In this document: piece by piece, positions 1 to 7,819 of the stretch
How the letters are laid out: every line of letters begins with the position of its first letter
Position numbering within the stretch: the first letter of the stretch is position 1
Assembly (NCBI GenBank): GCA_902795835.1
Contig: CADBNA010000351.1
Coordinates: 1-7,819, forward strand
Source: an uncultured Lachnospiraceae bacterium
GTDB taxonomy: Bacteria > Bacillota_A > Clostridia > Lachnospirales > Lachnospiraceae
Direction: 5' to 3'
Length of the DNA: 7,819 nt
Notes under the pieces: generated by a model
Told to the model about the DNA's origin: nothing
The model's database searches: none
What the model saw: the letters and a program-made list of their open reading frames with translations, nothing else
Position numbers and translations under genes: made by a program

Positions 1-23
1 CAGGTTTAGAAGGGAGGGGCTTG

Positions 24-470
24 ATGAAAGATGGTAGATTCTGGAGGAGAGGCGCCGGTGAATTCATCGGATATACGATAACGGTCACCTTTCTGCTCTA
101 TATCCTGATCCTCGGACTTTCCGCGATGATCCTCTTCCGAAATATCCGCCTTCTTACGCAGAGCGCGCAGAAGGCGGCAAGAGAGTGCGTGACGGCGCAC
201 AGCCTTGCCGACGCAGAGAAAATCGCGCAGATGGAAGCCGACAAGGCCCTGCAGGGGCGCACCGGCGTTTCGGATATCCGCGCATCGGTGACGCCGGCGG
301 CCTTTTCGGGTAATGAGTGGAAGAAGGGGAGCTATATCTACGTGAGGGTATCGGCCTATATTGCGACAATGGATCCTCTGACATCCGGGACGCGCGACTG
401 CGTAGTGATGATCATGGTCGAGCATGAAGAGGATGAGGAAGAGGATCCAAGGCTTGCGGAAGGGGGGTGA
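24..470 (+). CDS. TadE-like pseudopilin (stand-alone)
   Basis: This 148-residue protein has a short basic N-terminus, the motif RRGAGEF at residues 8-14, one long hydrophobic segment (about 15-37) and an extracytoplasmic domain of about 80 residues, the TadE-like minor-pilin plan. ATG 24 is preferred over the adjacent TTG 21 because GGAGG at 13-17 leaves a 6-base spacer. The domain ends in a block (W-x-K-G-S-Y-I-x-V, then TMDP) that recurs in the lysozyme fusion downstream, so the two are paralogues. The last 16 residues are strikingly acidic (EHEEDEEEDP). Its stop lies within the ribosome site of the next gene, indicating one operon. The likely role is a minor structural subunit of a Tad/Flp-like pilus or pseudopilus. 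An upstream gene may end at TAG 7-9. The family call is from architecture and motif only. Confidence 0.72.
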   Translation: MKDGRFWRRGAGEFIGYTITVTFLLYILILGLSAMILFRNIRLLTQSAQKAARECVTAHSLADAEKIAQMEADKALQGRTGVSDIRASVTPAAFSGNEWKKGSYIYVRVSAYIATMDPLTSGTRDCVVMIMVEHEEDEEEDPRLAEGG

Positions 471-476
471 CAGATC

Positions 477-1319
477 ATGCGGAAGGCGTATCTTTTTTTT
501 CGGAAAGGGACCGGAACCATGCTCCTGGGAAGTTTCATGTGCGTTATCTGCGCGGTGTTTTTCCTGTATTTCTGGAACATGTTCCTGTTAAACAACAGTG
601 CCGTCAACATGCAGAATGCCCTTGATTCCATAGCGGACGGGACAGCCTATGCCATGGCAAAGGATACAGGAGAGTATGAGGATGCCGTTGACGAGGCCGG
701 AAGGGTAAGAGGCATCGTCACGGATGCTCTGGGCGCGGATCTCGGACCGGTTGCTGTCAGCCGGGAGGCGTTTGAGAAGAGCACGATTGATCTTACCGTC
801 AGGGGAATGCTGTATCCGGCCGCAGCAGGAATCTCAGTCGTCAGGCGCTCCGCGACCACATTCGGAGCCTGTGAGTATGTTCAGTGGATGATGCGCGTAG
901 CGGAAAATGACCATATCGGATACAGCCAGGCGGACCGGTATTCCCTGTTTTCGGCTGCTGATCTGAACGAGAATACTTCGATGCAGGTCAACTGCGACTG
1001 CTCTTCCCTGGTCAGCATGGCCATGATGAAGGCGGGGATTTTTGACAGGTCCGGCGCTTCCATCTGTACAACGGCTACGCTGCCGAACGCGCTGCTCTCT
1101 GCCGGGGCAAGGGATGTGACATCAGAGACCGAAGGCGGCACGGATCTTTCCCGCATGCGGAAGGGAGACATCCTGATCTGGGACGGCGCGGGAAATCTGG
1201 GGCACGCGAAAGTCTATGCCGGGAACGGCCTGCAGGTGGAAGCGGCCGGCGATGACATCGGGGTGATTGTCACATCGTACTACATTGACGGGCATGACTG
1301 GCATGTATACAGACTGTGA
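477..1319 (+). CDS. TadE-like pseudopilin fused to NlpC/P60-type peptidoglycan hydrolase
   Basis: The protein has 280 residues. Residues 1-12 are basic and end in RKGTG, 14-38 form one membrane segment, and about 40-125 are a TadE-like extracytoplasmic region. Residues about 130-280 look like an NlpC/P60 or phage amidase-type cysteine hydrolase. The catalytic Cys is probably C175 in CDCSSLVS, followed by RKGDILIWD (228-236), then H243 in GHAKVYAGNG; E255 in QVEA sits where the third catalytic polar residue is expected. This fold cuts peptide bonds in the wall stem peptide. With an N-in anchor the enzyme would face the wall. ATG 477 has the purine-rich site AGGGGGGTGA at 461-470, shared with the preceding stop. 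The 3' end overlaps the next gene's ribosome site. The hydrolase call is good; the pilin-like N-terminus is inferred from position and layout. Confidence 0.78.
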   Translation: MRKAYLFFRKGTGTMLLGSFMCVICAVFFLYFWNMFLLNNSAVNMQNALDSIADGTAYAMAKDTGEYEDAVDEAGRVRGIVTDALGADLGPVAVSREAFEKSTIDLTVRGMLYPAAAGISVVRRSATTFGACEYVQWMMRVAENDHIGYSQADRYSLFSAADLNENTSMQVNCDCSSLVSMAMMKAGIFDRSGASICTTATLPNALLSAGARDVTSETEGGTDLSRMRKGDILIWDGAGNLGHAKVYAGNGLQVEAAGDDIGVIVTSYYIDGHDWHVYRL

Positions 1320-1324
1320 GGTGG
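1318..1324 (+). promoter_or_regulatory. Ribosome binding site deciding the ATG 1328 start
   Basis: GAGGTGG overlaps the stop of the upstream hydrolase gene (TGA 1317-1319). GAGG is followed by a 6-base spacer before ATG 1328, whereas GTG 1316 would begin before its own ribosome site. Translation of the two hydrolases is therefore probably coupled. Confidence 0.6.
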
Positions 1325-1327
1325 CCC

Positions 1328-2242
1328 ATGGGATACCGAATCGTAAGGAAGATGAAATCCGGAGTCGGTGAGATGGTCTCTTTTTCCATCATCTGCGTAC
1401 TGCTGTCCGTCATTTTCATCTATATCACGGCCTTCCTGCAGTACGCGCATGCCATGGATGCCCTGACCAACGCGCTTACGGCGGCAGGGCGCGCGGCAGC
1501 GCTGTGCGAAAGCGAGGAGGACGCGAGAAGGCGCGTTCAGATGGTGGCGGAAGCGGCTGTTACGGATCCCGCCCTTTCCGAAATAGAGACGGAAATGTCT
1601 TACGCCGACGGGAACAGCTGGGAGGGCGGCAGCTACGTAAAGGTAACGGTCAGGGCCTATGTAAGGACGATGGATCCCTATATCCTTTCCGGCGTAAGGT
1701 CAAAATCACTGGTTACGGTCATTGAAGAAAAAATACAGCTCTATGGAAGCAACATCAATCTGTCACCGGAAGCGGAGGCGCTCCGTCCTCTGGTGGAGGC
1801 CTGTGCGGCCGAGTACGGCATATCCGAATACGTCCCCGTCCTCATGGCGATCATCATGAACGAATCCGGGGGCGTCTATCATCCGGACGGCGGAGAGTAT
1901 ACCGGAATCAGTGACGCATCCGGCGGCATTGCGATAGGAGCGGAGGAGTCGCTTCGGGAAGAGGCCAGGATTTTCCGGGACATACTGGACTATACCTACG
2001 CGAGAGGATGCGATCTGGACACGGCGATACAGTCCTATAATTACGGGCCGGGATTTGCCGATTTCGTGGCGGCAAGAGGAGGCGCCTACAGCTTTGAACT
2101 GGCAGAAGAGTTTGCCATGATGTATTCGGGCGGGGCAACCGTCCCTTACGTAAATGCCATATCCGTACCGATCAACGGCGGATGGCGGTATCAGTACGGG
2201 TGCATGTTTTACGTTCTCTGCGCGCACCAGTATCTGGGCTGA
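1328..2242 (+). CDS. TadE-like pseudopilin fused to CwlT-type lysozyme-like muramidase
   Basis: The protein has 304 residues from ATG 1328, which is favoured over GTG 1316 because GAGGTGG at 1318-1324 is correctly spaced. Residues 1-15 carry KSGVGEM, 17-40 are one membrane segment, and 41-140 are a TadE-like domain matching the first protein of the operon (W-E-G-G-S-Y-V-x-V and TMDP). Residues about 145-304 match the lysozyme-like domain of CwlT-type enzymes: VLMAIIMNESGG (171-182) with E179 as the presumed catalytic glutamate, EESLREEARIF (206-216), and AIQSYNYGPGF (233-243). Such domains cut the glycan strand of peptidoglycan. In conjugative elements this domain normally sits in one protein with an NlpC/P60 domain; here that partner is the gene just upstream. 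The two genes would then supply complementary wall cleavage to the same envelope machine. Confidence 0.82.
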   Translation: MGYRIVRKMKSGVGEMVSFSIICVLLSVIFIYITAFLQYAHAMDALTNALTAAGRAAALCESEEDARRRVQMVAEAAVTDPALSEIETEMSYADGNSWEGGSYVKVTVRAYVRTMDPYILSGVRSKSLVTVIEEKIQLYGSNINLSPEAEALRPLVEACAAEYGISEYVPVLMAIIMNESGGVYHPDGGEYTGISDASGGIAIGAEESLREEARIFRDILDYTYARGCDLDTAIQSYNYGPGFADFVAARGGAYSFELAEEFAMMYSGGATVPYVNAISVPINGGWRYQYGCMFYVLCAHQYLG

Positions 2243-2390
2243 TACCGGATGCCGCAAGGAGCGTGCCACAGACTGATTCTGTCATATTTACGGTGAGGCA
2301 GATCCTTCTTTACAGCAGCACATGGAAGCGGGAACTGCCTCCGGACAGAAGAAAACCGGATTGGCCGGATTACGGCAGGAAGGCGGATAT

Positions 2391-2612
2391 ATGAGTGGAA
2401 AAGCAAAAGCCTTGAAGAGATACGCGAAGCGGTTTATTGAGGAAGAGTCGGGTATGGAACTGCTCCAGATGGCGATTGTACTGGCGGTTACCGTCGGACT
2501 GATCGGCGTGGTAAAAGGTCTTGGAGACATGGTGAGCAGGAACATCTCCAACGCGTCCAATAACGCGGATGCCGAGCTGGGCTCCATCATAGGCACCGGC
2601 ACGGGAAACTGA
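2391..2612 (+). CDS. Flp-like (type IVb) pilin, small structural subunit
   Basis: This 73-residue protein has a basic leader (MSGKAKALKRYAKRF), an acidic EEES, then G21 and a long hydrophobic helix (about 24-44: LLQMAIVLAVTVGLIGVV). A short polar tail rich in Asn, Ser and Gly follows. This is the plan of Flp-type pilins processed by a prepilin peptidase after the Gly, which would leave a mature subunit of about 52 residues. ATG 2391 follows AGGAAGG at 2377-2383 with a 7-base spacer, so the in-frame ATG 2322 is disfavoured. Glu lies at +2 of the mature chain and Gln at +5, where Flp pilins usually have Glu. A terminator-like hairpin follows at once, consistent with a separately abundant pilin message. 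The 148 bases before the gene show no feature beyond a weak 5-bp inverted repeat at 2268-2282. Confidence 0.7.
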   Translation: MSGKAKALKRYAKRFIEEESGMELLQMAIVLAVTVGLIGVVKGLGDMVSRNISNASNNADAELGSIIGTGTGN

Positions 2613-2638
2613 CAGAAAGCCGGGCAAAAAAAGTGTGT

Positions 2639-2674
2639 GCTGCCGCAGGGTGCTGCTTGCGGCAGCTTTTCTTT
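2639..2674 (+). terminator. Perfect-stem terminator or attenuator after the pilin gene
   Basis: GCTGCCGCA (2639-2647) pairs perfectly with TGCGGCAGC (2658-2666) around a 10-base loop, followed by TTTTCTTT (2667-2674). A run of seven A precedes it at 2626-2632. It lies between the pilin stop and the ribosome site (2675-2683) of the next gene, so it probably allows partial readthrough: abundant pilin mRNA, less of the downstream message. Confidence 0.72.
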
Positions 2675-2690
2675 GGGGGGTGAATCAGGC

Positions 2691-4142
2691 ATGAGAAAAC
2701 GAATGAGAACGGCAGCGGCTTTTGCCTTATCCTGGCTGCTTCTTTCCTCTGTCACATACGGTGAGGACATACAGGTTACGATAACGGAAGGGGGATACGC
2801 GGATCTGCAGGCTCACGGGCAGGGCGGAAATGCCGCGGGAGGATACGGAAACGCTGACAATGCCGGGAATACCGGTATGATGGAACAGTCATCCGCCGGA
2901 GGAGGCGCTTCCTATGGAGGAAGTGCGGCCGTGCCGGTTCCGACGCCGGCTGCACAGGGCAGGGCGCTGGAGAGCCAGAGGGAAGTAAAGCGCCTGCTGC
3001 AGAGCCTGATGAACCGCGCAAGGAACAATTCCAGAACCGTTCAGTCGGGCGTGAGCCTTCTTACCATGGGGACTGCCGAAATGTCCTTATCCGAAGTGGA
3101 GAGCCTGCGGAAGCATCTGGGAACCTTCTATGAGTCCCTGGGATCCGCGTACATCCGCGGGAACCAGCTGGAAGGATATGCCTCACTGCTTGAAGGATGG
3201 TTTTCAGATGGAGGAACGGAACAGTCCGGAAGTGAAAGCGGGTCTTCCCGGACCTGGACGGCGCCAGATGCCGACGATCCCTCCAACCGCGCGGGAGGGC
3301 TTTACAACTCGCAGGCGCCGGGTTCAGGCGCGCTCCCATCTTCAGATATCAGCGGGCTGCATCTTGGCAACAGGGGGGACTACCGTGACTTTCTTTCTTC
3401 CGTCAATCTCGCGGATGAGGAGATGCGTGCCGTCTGGAAGGAACTCGCATCCAAAATGCATGCGCAGTACGCGGACAGGGAAGGACAGGTTTACTATTTT
3501 CCGGCAGGAAACGCATACCTTCACGGCGGCGTTTATCCGCCGGTGCATTTCTACGGCCTGGATGCGGAAGGCCGTTTTGCCGGGGACTACGGCGGCATCC
3601 GGATGGACCTGGTCGCGGGAGGTCTGCATGACTGCACTTCCTGGATCGGCAGGTTTTCCGGGATTCTGGGCAGGTACCGGTCGGGAGCGCTTACGGATTC
3701 GGTCAGTGTGGCATATCTGGAAGATACATGTATTACACATGTGGGAGAGCGGAACCTCTATAATGTGAATTACACTTCCAATAACAGGCGCTGGAGGATT
3801 TATGACCGGAACAACAACCTGGTCCACACGGAGTTTACGGACAACATAGAGCATATCTACAGGATAGAAGGCCTTGCAGAGGGCACGTACCGGGTCCTGG
3901 TCGATCAGGAAGCCGTTTTTGACTACAGGCGGGATATGACATATTCAGGCTGCGAGTATCTGGTGGATACCGCGACAGGGAATATTCTGTACTTCAATGA
4001 AAAGGGGGCCGTGGGGAATATCACGCTTGAGAGGGAGAGGGTATCCGGCTATGTAAGCACCGGCCAGACCTTTCTTCTGACGGTGCAGGAAGGCGGGGAT
4101 GCCTCCCTTACGGAAGATCCGCCGACACAGCGGGTCCGGTAG
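2691..4142 (+). CDS. Secreted protein of unknown function in the pilus-like operon
   Basis: The protein has 483 residues from ATG 2691, preceded by GGGGGGTGA (2675-2683). An open stretch reaching back to 2637 would place coding sequence across the terminator and is rejected. Residues 1-24 form a signal peptide (MRKRMRT, hydrophobic core, VTYG). Residues 34-90 are a Gly/Ala/Asn-rich low-complexity linker, 91-170 are largely helical, and 172-220 are a Ser/Gly-rich linker. Residues 228-330 contain YYFPAGNAYLHGG and HFYGLDAEGRF. Residues 335-475 look beta-rich and Ig-like, including RRWRIYDRNNN and GLAEGTYRVLVD. No membrane anchor or LPXTG signal is seen at the C-terminus. I do not recognise a family. 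Position and export suggest a surface component, adhesin or tip protein of the apparatus, but this is inference. Confidence 0.75.
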   Translation: MRKRMRTAAAFALSWLLLSSVTYGEDIQVTITEGGYADLQAHGQGGNAAGGYGNADNAGNTGMMEQSSAGGGASYGGSAAVPVPTPAAQGRALESQREVKRLLQSLMNRARNNSRTVQSGVSLLTMGTAEMSLSEVESLRKHLGTFYESLGSAYIRGNQLEGYASLLEGWFSDGGTEQSGSESGSSRTWTAPDADDPSNRAGGLYNSQAPGSGALPSSDISGLHLGNRGDYRDFLSSVNLADEEMRAVWKELASKMHAQYADREGQVYYFPAGNAYLHGGVYPPVHFYGLDAEGRFAGDYGGIRMDLVAGGLHDCTSWIGRFSGILGRYRSGALTDSVSVAYLEDTCITHVGERNLYNVNYTSNNRRWRIYDRNNNLVHTEFTDNIEHIYRIEGLAEGTYRVLVDQEAVFDYRRDMTYSGCEYLVDTATGNILYFNEKGAVGNITLERERVSGYVSTGQTFLLTVQEGGDASLTEDPPTQRVR

Positions 4143-4265
4143 ATGGCGTCCCCGGTCAGAAATCACACACTTCTTTTGAGGGATTCCGATATTGGCAGGT
4201 TTTTCCTGAAGATACCGGGATCCCTTTATGATGCAGTGATGGAAATGGATGGAAAAGCATGCTAA
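4143..4265 (+). CDS. Possible 40-residue ORF abutting the secreted-protein stop
   Basis: ATG 4143 directly follows TAG 4140-4142 and opens a frame to TAA 4263-4265. It encodes MASPVRNHTLLLRDSD, then IGRFFLKIPGSLYDAVMEM and a short end. No ribosome site precedes it, so expression would depend on termination-reinitiation coupling. It could be a real small gene, the N-terminal remnant of a longer gene, or chance. I recognise no family. It overlaps upstream extensions of the next gene but not its preferred start at 4312. Confidence 0.25.
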   Translation: MASPVRNHTLLLRDSDIGRFFLKIPGSLYDAVMEMDGKAC

Positions 4266-4311: not shown

Positions 4312-5247
4312 ATGGAACACAAAAGAGAAAAGAAGAATTCAATGATTATTGAACAGGCCTTTGATCTTATTTGCCTTGCTGTGTCTTATGGAATTCTGTT
4401 CCTTCTCCCCCAGAAGATCGATTTCTTCTTTTACCTGATCTTTGGGGTATCCGCCTTTCTGTTTTGCATCGGTTTCTTCCGTCTGGGCTTTTCGTTTGAT
4501 GCCCCGGCAGGCTCTAAGGGGGAACTGGTTGCCGGATTGTTTTACACGGGGTTTGGAACGGTTTTAAATGCTGCGGGTTTATATGGCATCTGTCAGGACC
4601 ATGGCAGCGGACGCAGTATTACGATTGCGACACTTCTGCTGATCGAAGCGCTTGTATTGTTTGCCATGGCAGGGAGCAGTCCCAAAACGCCGGGAACGCA
4701 GAGACTGTCAGCGATCGTGTTTCGGGCTGCGGCTGTTCTCCTTATTGTTTTCGGGATCGCGTTTGCCCTCTGGAAGCGTATCAGCGTCTCTTCCGTGATT
4801 GCTGCGACCATGCTTCTGATTGAAGGAATTTGCCTCTGGAGGATGGGAGGCGGCAGCAATCCATTCAATACACTGAATTCCGAAATACAGGCGGTCCCGG
4901 GACTTCGGATTCAGATCTCGCAGCTTCAGCAGACTTTTGCCGGTGTAGAGACACAGCTGGGATACCCGTGGATCGGGAAGATCAAATCGATCGGGCAGGA
5001 TGCTGTCATTTACGGCCCTTCGGAAGACGGCTTCTGCGTTTACGGCTACTATCTTTATGGGCGTTTCTATGTCGCCGGCAGTACCAGCCCTCTCTTTCCC
5101 AGCCCTGAAGATACCGCGGGGCATACCGTAACAGAAGTTCCGGACAGCAGCGGGCTCCTGCTGGCAAAAGAAGACCTTCCGAAAGCATATGCCGGAATGT
5201 TTGCACGGTATGCAGAGAACGGAAGCACGCAGTGGATCACGGATTGA
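4312..5247 (+). CDS. Six-TM membrane protein with soluble C-terminal domain, function unknown
   Basis: The protein has 311 residues from ATG 4312, chosen because AGGGA at 4301-4305 gives a 6-base spacer; an in-frame ATG at 4249 lacks a ribosome site. Hydrophobic segments lie near 12-33, 37-59, 70-93, 103-120, 132-154 and 159-177. They are followed by a soluble region of about 130 residues containing GRFYVAGSTSP. TM4 and TM6 share an evident repeat (ATLLLIEALVLFAM against ATMLLIEGICLWRM), and TM1-2 has the same hairpin layout, suggesting three two-TM units. The six-TM half resembles general DUF-type membrane proteins, but no family is recognised. The gene ends next to the ribosome site of the nitroreductase gene, so the two are probably co-transcribed. 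The link to the upstream pilus operon is unclear; composition here is less GC-rich. Confidence 0.7.
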   Translation: MEHKREKKNSMIIEQAFDLICLAVSYGILFLLPQKIDFFFYLIFGVSAFLFCIGFFRLGFSFDAPAGSKGELVAGLFYTGFGTVLNAAGLYGICQDHGSGRSITIATLLLIEALVLFAMAGSSPKTPGTQRLSAIVFRAAAVLLIVFGIAFALWKRISVSSVIAATMLLIEGICLWRMGGGSNPFNTLNSEIQAVPGLRIQISQLQQTFAGVETQLGYPWIGKIKSIGQDAVIYGPSEDGFCVYGYYLYGRFYVAGSTSPLFPSPEDTAGHTVTEVPDSSGLLLAKEDLPKAYAGMFARYAENGSTQWITD

Positions 5248-5266
5248 GGAGGAAAGTATTGTAATA

Positions 5267-6139
5267 ATGCAGAGTATTAACAATCAGCCGAACAGAAGAA
5301 ATGGTCCCACGCCTTCCGGAGGCGATTACTCAGAGATTTTCTACTTCAACGAGCGTCATGAGATCGCAGAGCCGGAGGAGGCAGTCTCTGGAATAATCCG
5401 CGAATGCAGGGAAGACGGAACACTTGTGCAGGAAACCTGGTTCAGGGTGAATCAGGAGAAAGGAGAATCGGCGATGACACTGTCTGAAGCAATTGATGCC
5501 CGCCATTCTGTAAGGGCGTACAAAGACAAACCGATACCTGAAGATATCCGTACGCAGCTCGATGCATTCGTTGCGGAGTGCAATGAAGAGGGCAACCTCC
5601 ACATCTCTGTTCAGTATGATGATCCCGCAGGGTTTGATTCCAGACTGGCACAGTACGGCAGTTTCCGAAATGTGCAGAACTATATTGTCCTTGCAGGGAA
5701 GAAGGAGGGGGATTTTGATTTCCGCTGCGGATACTATGGGGAAAAGATCGTTCTTTTCGCGCAGCAGGCAGGACTTAATACCTGTTGGGCAGCTTTGACT
5801 TTCAACAAACGGCGTGTGAAGGAGATCGTACCCCCGGGAGATTCTCTCTGTATGGTGATCGCTTTGGGATTTGGAGAGACGCAGGGAAACAGCCGCAGGA
5901 GCAAAACCGTCGATGAAGTCGTAATAAGCAGGGGGGAGATGCCTGACTGGTTCCGCAGGGGCGTGGAGGCGGCGCTTAAGGCGCCTACGGCAATGAACCA
6001 GCAGAAATTTGTTTTCGGCATGAAGGATGGAAAGCCGGCAGTAAAAGTAAAGGGCATAGGCGTTCATACGAAGGTCGACTGCGGGATTGTTGCGTACCAT
6101 TTTGAGGTGGAATCCGGCAGAAAGGTGACGTTTGCCTGA
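5267..6139 (+). CDS. Nitroreductase family protein (TM1586 type) with N-terminal extension
   Basis: From ATG 5267 the protein has 290 residues; the nitroreductase proper starts at ATG 5474 and has 221. Nitroreductases bind FMN and reduce nitro compounds, quinones or similar acceptors with NAD(P)H in the cytoplasm. In 5474 numbering, ARHSVR (9-14) is the phosphate-binding start, YYGEKIVLFAQQAGLNTCW (87-105) is the central helix region, and APTAMNQQKF (170-179) is the second FMN motif typical of the TM1586 group. VDCGIVAYHFEV (201-212) closes the fold. The extra 69 residues include a compact segment (GGDYSEIFYFN, then about 35 residues). GGAGG at 5248-5252 serves the far start with a long 14-base spacer. 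ATG 5474 has a better site. Both forms may be made. The physiological substrate cannot be told. Confidence 0.85.
   Translation: MQSINNQPNRRNGPTPSGGDYSEIFYFNERHEIAEPEEAVSGIIRECREDGTLVQETWFRVNQEKGESAMTLSEAIDARHSVRAYKDKPIPEDIRTQLDAFVAECNEEGNLHISVQYDDPAGFDSRLAQYGSFRNVQNYIVLAGKKEGDFDFRCGYYGEKIVLFAQQAGLNTCWAALTFNKRRVKEIVPPGDSLCMVIALGFGETQGNSRRSKTVDEVVISRGEMPDWFRRGVEAALKAPTAMNQQKFVFGMKDGKPAVKVKGIGVHTKVDCGIVAYHFEVESGRKVTFA
5454..5465 (+). promoter_or_regulatory. Internal ribosome binding site for the nitroreductase core
   Basis: AGGAGAAAGGAG lies 8 bases before ATG 5474, exactly where nitroreductase proteins of this family usually begin (MTLSEAI-ARHSVRAY). It supports an internal start and a two-product or two-gene reading of the 5267-6139 frame. 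Confidence 0.5.
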
Positions 6140-6580: not shown

Positions 6581-7573
6581 CTATGCCATACAGAATTCCC
6601 TCGTTCGCCCGGTACGGAAGCATTTTACAAGATTGGCACTGGCAAACAGAATGTGGAAACGATTCATGTTTTTGGCTATACCCCGGTATACCACCTTGGC
6701 ATATCCGAACTGCCGCTTGACAATTAAAAACGGATGTTCAACTTTGCATCTGACCGATGACTTCCGGTTTTCGATCTCCTTATCCCAGTTGATGCCATTA
6801 TAGCTGGGAGAGATCTTAAGGCTGGACGGCCTGACGTTTGTACGGAACTCTATGTTCCGAAAATGTTCGTTATTCCGAATCTCCGGCCGCTTTTCGGCTC
6901 CGCTGTATCCGGAATCGCCGTAGCAGACCTCATCGTCCTCTCGCAGGAGATTGGCGGTTTCATCGATGTCATGGACATTGGCTGCTGTTCCTGTGATCGT
7001 GTGTACGTAACCGCTCCCGGCATCAACTCCGGCATGGACTTTCATGCCGTGGTACCACTGGTTGCCTTTCCTGGTCTGGTGCATTTCCGGATCACGTTTG
7101 CCCTCTTTGTTCTTGGTAGAACTCGGAGCTGCGATGATCGTCGCATCTACAATGGAGCCGCCATGCATGATCAGTCCGGCTTTTTCCAGGCGATCGCTCA
7201 CATCCTGAAAGATCTTTTCTCCGATGTGATGCTGCTCCAGAAGATGCCAGAACTTCAGCAGGGTTGTAGCATCCGGAACCTGTTCATCGATGAAGTTGAT
7301 CCCGAGGAAGTTTCTCATGGCATAGCTGTCATAAATGGCTTCTTCCATCCCTTCATCGGAAAGATTGAACCAGTTCTGCATAAGATACATGCGGAGCATG
7401 ACTTCGATGTCCTTCGGCCTGCGGCCACGTTTGCTATTATAATAATATGGCCGGATGATCTCGATCCACTGAGCCCAGGGAATGATTTCATCCATGGATT
7501 CAAGGAAGCGTTCCCGCTTGGTTTTACGCCGGCGGTTTGCGTATTCAATGTCACTAAATGATTGTTGTTTCAT
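6581..7573 (-). CDS. IS5-family (IS5 group) DDE transposase
   Basis: This 330-residue protein cuts and joins the ends of the element. It is full length for the group and strongly resembles the E. coli IS5 transposase: SDEGMEEAIYD (72-82), PDATTLLKFWHLLEQH (100-115), DATIIAAPSSTKNKEGKRDP (143-162), MHQTRKGNQWYHGMKVH (164-180). The DDE triad is D143 (VDATII), D220 (YGDSGY) and E279 (VEHPF). R275 and K286 give the R(3)E(6)K spacing of the C-terminal signature, although its usual Tyr is replaced by Ser. The frame is intact, with ATG at 7573 preceded by GGGACGG (7581-7587, - strand) at a 7-base spacer. No defect is seen. It is transcribed against all neighbouring genes. Confidence 0.95.
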   Translation of the reverse strand: MKQQSFSDIEYANRRRKTKRERFLESMDEIIPWAQWIEIIRPYYYNSKRGRRPKDIEVMLRMYLMQNWFNLSDEGMEEAIYDSYAMRNFLGINFIDEQVPDATTLLKFWHLLEQHHIGEKIFQDVSDRLEKAGLIMHGGSIVDATIIAAPSSTKNKEGKRDPEMHQTRKGNQWYHGMKVHAGVDAGSGYVHTITGTAANVHDIDETANLLREDDEVCYGDSGYSGAEKRPEIRNNEHFRNIEFRTNVRPSSLKISPSYNGINWDKEIENRKSSVRCKVEHPFLIVKRQFGYAKVVYRGIAKNMNRFHILFASANLVKCFRTGRTREFCMA

Positions 7574-7661: not shown

Positions 7662-7665
7662 CTAG
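7662..7665. repeat. Right target-site copy (CTAG) of the insertion element
   Basis: CTAG abuts the right terminal repeat. It differs from the left TTAG by one pyrimidine; in the rejoined gene both read as leucine (TTA or CTA), so the difference is silent. Confidence 0.55.
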
Positions 7666-7819
7666 ATATAAAGACCATGTGCATAGAGACCGGCACCTCT
7701 CAAACGGAGATTGCCGATAAGCTTGACGTATCAATTCCATATGTCAATCGAATCATCAAGGGTCGGGAGCAGATCGTGAACAAGACGTTCGTGAAAATGA
7801 TGGATGAACTCGGCTATGA
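7662..7819 (+). pseudogene. 3' part of XRE-family HTH regulator, truncated by the IS, runs off the window
   Basis: The frame reads LDIKTMCIETGTSQTE, then IADKLDVSIPYVNRIIKGRE and a conserved-looking VNKTFVKMMDELGY up to the window edge. TSQTEIADKL and SIPYVNRIIKG are the second and third helices of an XRE/Cro-type HTH that binds operator DNA as a dimer. The gene lost its promoter and first 18 codons to the insertion. The only usual start left is ATG 7677, which would give a protein lacking its N-terminal residues, without a recognisable ribosome site. A GGAGGTG at 7635-7641 within the IS end points this way but has no ATG, GTG or TTG in frame near it. The palindrome at 6345-6357 is its likely operator. 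The 3' end is outside the window. Confidence 0.65.

What the first reader, a model, noticed from the sequence alone, without database searches (positions are those of the whole stretch)
477..2242. Two peptidoglycan hydrolases carried on pilin-like (TadE-type) anchors, CwlT split in two
Adjacent genes each combine a basic leader with a Gly motif, one membrane helix, a TadE-like domain and a wall hydrolase: NlpC/P60 type (C175, H243) and CwlT-type muramidase (E179). In ICEBs1/Tn916-type elements these two catalytic domains sit in one CwlT protein. Here they are split and each joined to a pseudopilin inside a Tad/Flp-like operon, followed by a pilin. This suggests a pilus-like machine that opens the Gram-positive wall with enzymes that are themselves pseudopilins.
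Basis: partly seen in the sequence, partly recalled or inferred. Interest (0 to 1): 0.85.

Follow-up and report, generated by a model that had tools for sequence, protein, structure and literature searches.

The report
Pilus tip proteins carrying wall-cutting enzymes
A bacterial contig encodes two small pilus-type subunits that each end in a different cell-wall-cutting enzyme, which suggests a pilus that cuts its own way through the thick Gram-positive wall, although only the protein layout, not the activity, could be shown here.

Summary
P2 (477-1319) and P3 (1328-2242) are each a one-helix pseudopilin-like domain followed by a wall hydrolase: P2 an NlpC/P60 domain of endolysin (ELLD) type with C175, H243, E255; P3 a Lysozyme_like domain with E179.

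They sit between P1 (24-470, TadE-like, no enzyme) and P4 (2391-2612, Flp-like); secreted P5 follows. No Tad ATPase or platform gene is in the window, which opens at P1. But P1, the N-termini of P2 and P3, and P4 all match genes of one tad operon on the Ruminococcus albus 7 plasmid pRUMAL01, with TadZ-, TadA-, TadB-, TadC-type genes and a prepilin peptidase. AlphaFold gives P3's N-terminus a pilin-like shape (pLDDT 75.7).

"CwlT split in two" is not supported for P2: its enzyme domain is much nearer to endolysins than to CwlT's NlpC half. P3's lysozyme does fall within the CwlT family.

No accepted hit in 299 family and 391 class genomes reached the carriers. Best reading: modular minor pilins of a Tad tip that open peptidoglycan for pilus exit; a new variant of a known kind.

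The parts
24..470 (+). P1, 148 aa, TadE-like minor pilin without enzyme module
   Evidence: 31-33% identical to P3 N-terminus; hits RUMAL_RS16800 of the pRUMAL01 tad operon, tblastn E 7e-6; hhalign 97.2%
477..1319 (+). P2, 280 aa, modular pseudopilin: carrier 477-863, ELLD/NlpC-P60 hydrolase about 864-1319 (C175, H243, E255)
   Evidence: Pfam; residue alignment; carrier matches RUMAL_RS16805 N-terminus, hhalign 85.1% over 55 columns, BLASTP E 0.001
1328..2242 (+). P3, 304 aa, modular pseudopilin: TadE-like carrier about 1328-1738, Lysozyme_like domain about 1751-2242 (E179)
   Evidence: Pfam and PDB; carrier vs RUMAL_RS16800 BLASTP 44 bits, E 2e-10, 155 columns; AlphaFold of carrier
2391..2612 (+). 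P4, 73 aa, Flp-like major pilin (ESG/MELLQMAIVL)
   Evidence: PF16982 18 bits, below cut-off 33.5; top 3 of 225 blind targets are Flp-like ORFs; R. albus Flp-like protein 94.3%, P4 rank 1 of 226 in the reverse test
2691..4142 (+). P5, 483 aa, secreted protein of unknown family after the pilin genes; placed like RUMAL_RS16810
   Evidence: no Pfam; similarity to RS16810 weak: E 0.018, hhalign 3.8% though rank 1 of 176

Best explanation
P1-P4 are the pilin end of a Tad pilus operon of the kind found on the R. albus plasmid pRUMAL01. P1 is a plain TadE-like minor pilin, P4 the Flp-type major pilin, and P2 and P3 are modular minor pilins whose C-terminal modules are an NlpC/P60 (ELLD) enzyme and a lysozyme-type enzyme. 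A prepilin peptidase trims them, they prime the filament as its tip complex, and as the Flp shaft grows it pushes the two enzymes into the cell's own wall, where cutting peptide and glycan together opens a local hole for the pilus. Shown: the fusions, the gene order, homology of the carriers to tad-operon proteins, key enzyme residues. Inferred: processing, assembly at the tip, enzyme activity, and that the target is the own wall.
For: Carriers and the Flp-like protein match one operon annotated with an AAA ATPase, a T2SS/T4P ATPase (PF00437 8.2e-51), two T2SSF proteins and an A24 peptidase (PF01478 2.8e-12). A profile of the P1/P3-type carriers in 391 Clostridia genomes gave 14 weak hits; I fetched 8 of the 14 places and in 5 of the 8 the hit is a small ORF in a tad locus, four with a TadA ORF and one with a TadZ-like ORF only. 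AlphaFold of the P3 carrier: helix 2-59, helix 63-77, three strands. In one of these relatives, L224, a 1465-aa secreted M23 peptidase with Ig-like domains is the gene just upstream of the tad genes, on the same strand: a different wall enzyme beside the same kind of machine. Literature: TadEFG minor pilins are proposed to form tips with variable C-terminal modules (PMC12075869, passages); grafted modules on pilins are widespread (PMC8179133, passages); a separate hydrolase, LytF, promotes pilus exit in Streptococcus sanguinis (PMC13192262, abstract and passages).
Against: No ATPase, platform or peptidase gene in the window. The R. albus operon has no hydrolase module by Pfam, and none of 441 ORFs picked from 26 tad regions of 24 genomes matched P1, P2, P3 or P5, so a Tad pilus in such bacteria does not generally need these fusions. 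In P1 and P3 the Glu is at +3 from the Gly, not +5, and P2 has none. P3 and its closest relative lack the MQSSES stretch of CwlT, so activity could be changed. AlphaFold of P2 failed (pLDDT 39.1). Foldseek found no solved match of the P3 carrier at E 0.001, and pantothenate synthetases head the VIA list. P2's carrier link rests on about 50 residues.
Confidence: 0.5

Rival explanations
1. Tip weapon or bridge: the same modular tip cuts the wall of a neighbouring cell, for killing or for DNA transfer, and not (mainly) the producer's own wall.
For: Tad tips with variable modules kill prey by contact in Myxococcus (PMC12075869, passages). P2's module is of phage endolysin type. The closest homologous operon is on a plasmid typed mobilizable.
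Against: No immunity gene or relaxase recognised among the window's eight ORFs scanned; two wall enzymes beside the pilin are explained more simply by wall exit; no evidence that the window itself is a plasmid.
Confidence: 0.25
2. Membrane-tethered wall hydrolases: the pseudopilin part is only a membrane anchor and the enzymes loosen the wall around the Tad base without entering the filament.
For: P2 lacks the conserved Glu and P3 has it at an unusual place; LytF promotes pilus exit as a separate enzyme (PMC13192262, abstract and passages).
Against: A whole TadE-like domain is kept in P3, not just a helix, and it has a full-length sister, P1.
Confidence: 0.2
3. Decayed or chimeric artefact: chance fusion, pseudogenes or misassembly.
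For: P3 fusion seen in this contig only; MQSSES stretch absent.
Against: Open frames of 280 and 304 codons with key residues kept; P1 and P2 copies apparently on a second contig; a 79% identical P1 elsewhere; even GC3 across P1-P4.
Confidence: 0.05

Closest known systems
Tad operon of Ruminococcus albus 7 plasmid pRUMAL01 (RUMAL_RS16765-RS16810)
   Same: TadE-like RS16800, P2-type carrier RS16805, an 86-aa Flp-like protein and a secreted last gene; homology by sequence for the first three
   Different: RS16805 (457 aa) ends in a module without Pfam match over cut-off, there is no lysozyme fusion, and the Flp-like gene comes before, not after, the minor pilins
Tad tip complexes TadEFG / KilLMN of Myxococcus (PMC12075869, passages)
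   Same: minor pilins with variable C-terminal modules placed at a Tad pilus tip
   Different: the paper's main text held no word beginning 'hydrolase' or 'peptidoglycan' (term counts); here the modules are wall hydrolases in a presumed monoderm
Modular type IV pilins, e.g. PilB of S. sanguinis (PMC8179133, passages)
   Same: functional module grafted on a pilin
   Different: those were collected by the IPR012902 N-terminus; peptidases named in the passages are S74 and M26; 'hydrolase' and 'lysozyme' do not occur in the main text
CwlT of ICEBs1/Tn916-type elements
   Same: Lysozyme_like domain of P3 (4fdy E 5.8e-37) and tree placement
   Different: CwlT has both enzymes in one protein and no TadE-like part; P2's enzyme domain is nearer to ELLD endolysins
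LytF of S. sanguinis (PMC13192262, abstract and passages)
   Same: peptidoglycan hydrolase that promotes type IV pilus exit
   Different: a separate enzyme, not a pilin

Membership tests
Tad minor pilins (TadE-like) | basic leader, Gly, single N-terminal helix | tested here: met
   P1, P2, P3: 4 Arg/Lys in the first 11 residues, one hydrophobic segment each
Tad minor pilins (TadE-like) | Glu at +5 after the cleaved Gly | tested here: inconclusive
   P1 and P3 have G-x-G-E (Glu +3 from the Gly); so does R. albus RS16800; P2 has no Glu; cleavage site unknown
Tad minor pilins (TadE-like) | sequence match to TadE models | tested here: inconclusive
   no Pfam TadE hit for P1-P3; homologue RS16800 17.9 bits, cut-off 22.9; P2 to TIGR03816 E 0.05, far below cut-off
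Tad minor pilins (TadE-like) | long helix followed by small beta sheet | tested here: inconclusive
Tad minor pilins (TadE-like) | gene beside tadA/B/C and prepilin peptidase | tested here: inconclusive
   not in the window, which begins at P1; present beside the homologous R. albus genes
Flp pilin (P4) | short prepilin with Gly, Glu +5, Tyr +6 | tested here: inconclusive
   Gly present, Gln and Met at +5 and +6 by sequence; homology to the R. albus Flp-like protein 94.3%; Flp-like pilins without Tyr +6 are reported in Gram-positives (PMC3244431, passage)
CwlT | lysozyme and NlpC/P60 domains in one polypeptide | tested here: not met
   separate genes
CwlT | NlpC half of the CwlT kind | tested here: not met
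   P2 domain: no phmmer match to six CwlT-family proteins at E 10, four of four ELLD proteins at 1.3e-12 or better; only weak tblastn matches to CwlT-type genes, best 33 bits
Modular pilins | pilin N-terminus plus unrelated functional module | tested here: inconclusive
   architecture of P2 and P3 fits; that the carriers are assembled pilins, and IPR012902 itself, were not tested

The most novel reading that the evidence does not exclude
A self-drilling pilus: a Tad filament in a monoderm whose tip is built from two enzymes with complementary cuts (glycan and peptide), so that wall opening is mechanically coupled to filament growth and limited to the spot where the pilus emerges, or is delivered to a neighbour.
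Probability: 0.4. Interest if true: 0.82.

Novelty: new variant of a known kind. Interest (0 to 1): 0.62.

Why it matters
How type IV and Tad filaments pass a thick Gram-positive wall is little understood; the 2026 LytF paper offers one separate helper enzyme (PMC13192262, abstract and passages). A genetic fusion of two hydrolases to minor pilins would place the enzyme in the filament and make the idea directly testable with point mutants. It would also extend modular pilins from binding and predicted S74/M26 peptidase modules to wall hydrolases. The limit is that I found it in one lineage only.

Tried and rejected
Rejected: that both enzymes come from one CwlT. Not supported: that the fusion is common in the lineage (no accepted match reached the carriers). 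A fused relative with a very different carrier would show only its enzyme part there; I read the N-termini by eye only for hits that came with a locus and saw none like P2 or P3. Set aside: the two P2-carrier hits in the genus of G001 (L134, L137), both flagged with 2 stops inside; L137 was only listed for ORFs, L134 not looked at. ELLD-type hits in 3 of 5 genomes of the genus of G086: the one read, L149, is by eye a secreted protein with repeats, not a pilin.

Led nowhere: viral-contig scans with P2, P3, A1 and A9; first genome-contig scan; protein search with the P1+P3 carriers, 2 hits only, one with the same longest contig as P0017; PDB search with the carrier profile; P5 in plasmids and phages and in 16 genomes of the genus of G001; P1 in phages; DNA search of 1-4200 in plasmids; Lysozyme_like in 5 genomes with carrier hits, 0 of 5; AlphaFold of P2; Foldseek and VIA of the P3 carrier. 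Mafft misplaced P1 when lysozyme rows were added, so P3 was not modelled whole. The host is unknown: no own genome; the nitroreductase downstream is closest to G086, 72% identical, among 397 genomes.

Weak points kept: in the first blind hhalign test P2's carrier found no pilin at the top of 225 targets (best 10.4%) and the best for P1/P3 was a TadE-like ORF at only 20.7%; against a profile of 26 TadE-like ORFs P1/P3 reached 61% and P2 2.9%. The clear links came only with the R. albus proteins. P2's carrier did not match the second gene of L224 (3.2%).

Full report
What is there. The window holds, on the + strand, P1 24-470, P2 477-1319, P3 1328-2242 (GTG 1316 is the other start), P4 2391-2612 and P5 2691-4142. 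GC content of P1-P3 is 56% and third-position GC of P1-P4 67-68%, so they look like one unit. After P5 come a membrane protein, a nitroreductase and an IS5-type transposase.

The enzymes. P2 ends in an NlpC/P60 domain of ELLD type (PF25309 5.6e-14, PF00877 2.6e-7). C175, H243 and E255 line up with Cys, His and Glu in RipB/RipA-type chains (weak alignments; their role is recalled). P3 ends in a Lysozyme_like domain (1.9e-28; CwlT 4fdy 5.8e-37) with the Glu of the ESGG motif, E179. In a tree of 73 lysozyme-domain rows (72 different) P3 joins one other row, a secreted 679-aa protein of an uncultured Eubacterium genome (L016), at 100/99 on a long branch among CwlT-type rows; the bootstrap had not settled and 29 of 69 inner branches are open. 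Both lack the MQSSES stretch of CwlT. P2's enzyme domain matched the four ELLD proteins offered, which had been found with P2 itself, and none of six CwlT-family proteins at E 10; tblastn against 140 loci gave weak matches to CwlT-type genes, best 33 bits, E 0.003. So the two modules most likely have different origins.

The carriers. Pfam and NCBIfam do not name them. P1 and P3's N-terminus are paralogues (31-33% identity). tblastn of P1 against 72,556 plasmid records gave 4 records at E 10 or less, one of them convincing, R. albus 7 pRUMAL01, E 7e-6. There the gene, RS16800, annotated hypothetical, sits in an operon: RS16765 (RcpC match below cut-off), AAA ATPase (TadZ-like), T2SS/T4P ATPase, two T2SSF proteins, an 86-aa protein that I read as Flp-like, A24 peptidase, RS16800 (TadE match below cut-off), RS16805, RS16810. 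P3's N-terminus aligns with RS16800 at 44 bits, E 2e-10 for the single comparison. hhalign: P1-RS16800 97.2%, P3-RS16800 95.4%, P2-RS16805 N-terminus 85.1%, P4-R. albus Flp-like protein 94.3%, where P4 ranked 1 of 226 in the reverse test. Before these relatives were known, a blind test on 225 helix-bearing ORFs (of 441) from tad regions put three Flp-like ORFs on top for P4 and a TadE-like ORF on top, weakly, for P1+P3; it gave nothing for P2.

A second test: the profile of P1, P0026, the P3 carrier and RS16800 in 391 Clostridia genomes gave 14 genomes with a hit at E 0.01 or less, where about 4 are expected by chance from the E-values. I fetched 8 of the 14 places; in 5 of the 8 the hit ORF lies in a tad locus (L222, L224, L225, L227 with a TadA ORF, L223 with a TadZ-like ORF near the contig end) and in 3 it does not (L220, L221, L226). 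Six were not looked at.

Shape. AlphaFold of P3 residues 1-142 with four rows: pLDDT 75.7, pTM 0.62, one long helix, a second helix, three strands; PMC12075869 describes a helix followed by a stranded domain for the Kil minor pilins (passage). Search of the fold was not decisive. P2 gave no usable model.

How rare. P3 as query: 59 of 299 genomes of the family of G001 (the genome of L016) matched, none with the match starting before residue 125 of 308; 18 of 391 class genomes, none before residue 140 of 304. P2: 23 of 391, none before residue 126; 3 of 5 in the genus of G086, none before residue 99; 5 of 16 in the genus of G001, where the two carrier-side hits have stops inside and were set aside. 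TadA relatives are in 25 of 26 genomes tried; I fetched 26 tad regions of 24 of these genomes, some short, and of 441 ORFs picked there none matched P1, P2, P3 or P5 at E 0.01 and one matched P4. The picking kept the longest ORF where ORFs overlap, so a gene may have been missed. So tad loci are common in this group and the fused form was not seen. In 5.8 billion proteins the word-based search found the fusions only in this contig and, for P2, one more contig; that search is blind to distant relatives.

Mechanism. In Tad systems TadE/F/G-like minor pilins are proposed to form a tip that starts the filament and shows a variable C-terminal module (PMC12075869, passages). Here that module would be two wall enzymes. 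Since pilins leave the membrane tip first, the enzymes would meet the cell's own peptidoglycan first. P2 lacks the Glu that neighbouring subunits use, which in other systems marks the outermost tip subunit (recalled for GspK); this is inference. In a relative, L224, a 1465-aa secreted protein with an M23 peptidase and Ig-like domains (the wall-binding match is below cut-off) is the gene just upstream of the tad genes, and S. sanguinis uses LytF for pilus exit (PMC13192262, abstract and passages), so coupling of wall hydrolysis to pilus exit has precedent; for the fusion I saw none.

Print. Searches for TadE with lysozyme/NlpC/Tad pilus (5 papers, 5 listed), Tad pili with peptidoglycan hydrolase and pseudopilin (20 of 20), Tad pilus with Ruminococcus/Flp pili/Clostridia (6 of 6), modular pilins (7 of 7), minor pilin with NlpC and Tad (15 of 65 listed), type IV pilus with peptidoglycan hydrolase and monoderm (6 of 6), and TadE with peptidoglycan hydrolase and pilin (10 of 33 listed) showed no title or abstract start that describes such a fusion. 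I read passages of PMC8179133, PMC12075869 and PMC3244431, and the abstract plus passages of PMC13192262; no paper was read whole. The library lacks most subscription papers.

Verdict. Observation confirmed; Tad link well supported by homology but not seen in cis; CwlT-split idea not supported for P2; mechanism plausible, untested.

Noticed in passing
L224 14534-18931 (-): A 1465-aa secreted protein with M23 peptidase and Ig-like domains is the gene just upstream of a tad operon, in a stretch that also holds an actin-like (ALP_N) gene and may be an integrated element.
   Followed up: partly
L016 4660-6699 and 13515-15475: The closest lysozyme relative of P3 is a secreted 679-aa protein on a contig that also carries the start of a tad locus (by eye a prepilin peptidase, a TadZ-like ORF, and TadA) about 7 kb downstream.
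   Followed up: partly
L205 20500-21873: RUMAL_RS16805 has the P2-type carrier and a long C-terminal part with no Pfam match over cut-off: possibly another tip module.
   Followed up: no
window 6581-7573 (-): IS5-type transposase; no clear terminal inverted repeats found around it.
   Followed up: partly
window 5189-6139: TM1586-type nitroreductase ORF; most matches in relatives begin near residue 60-70 of the stretch from 5270, so the true start is probably near 5474.
   Followed up: no
window 7664-7819: Open frame at the right edge that reads by eye like a helix-turn-helix protein, cut by the window end.
   Followed up: no
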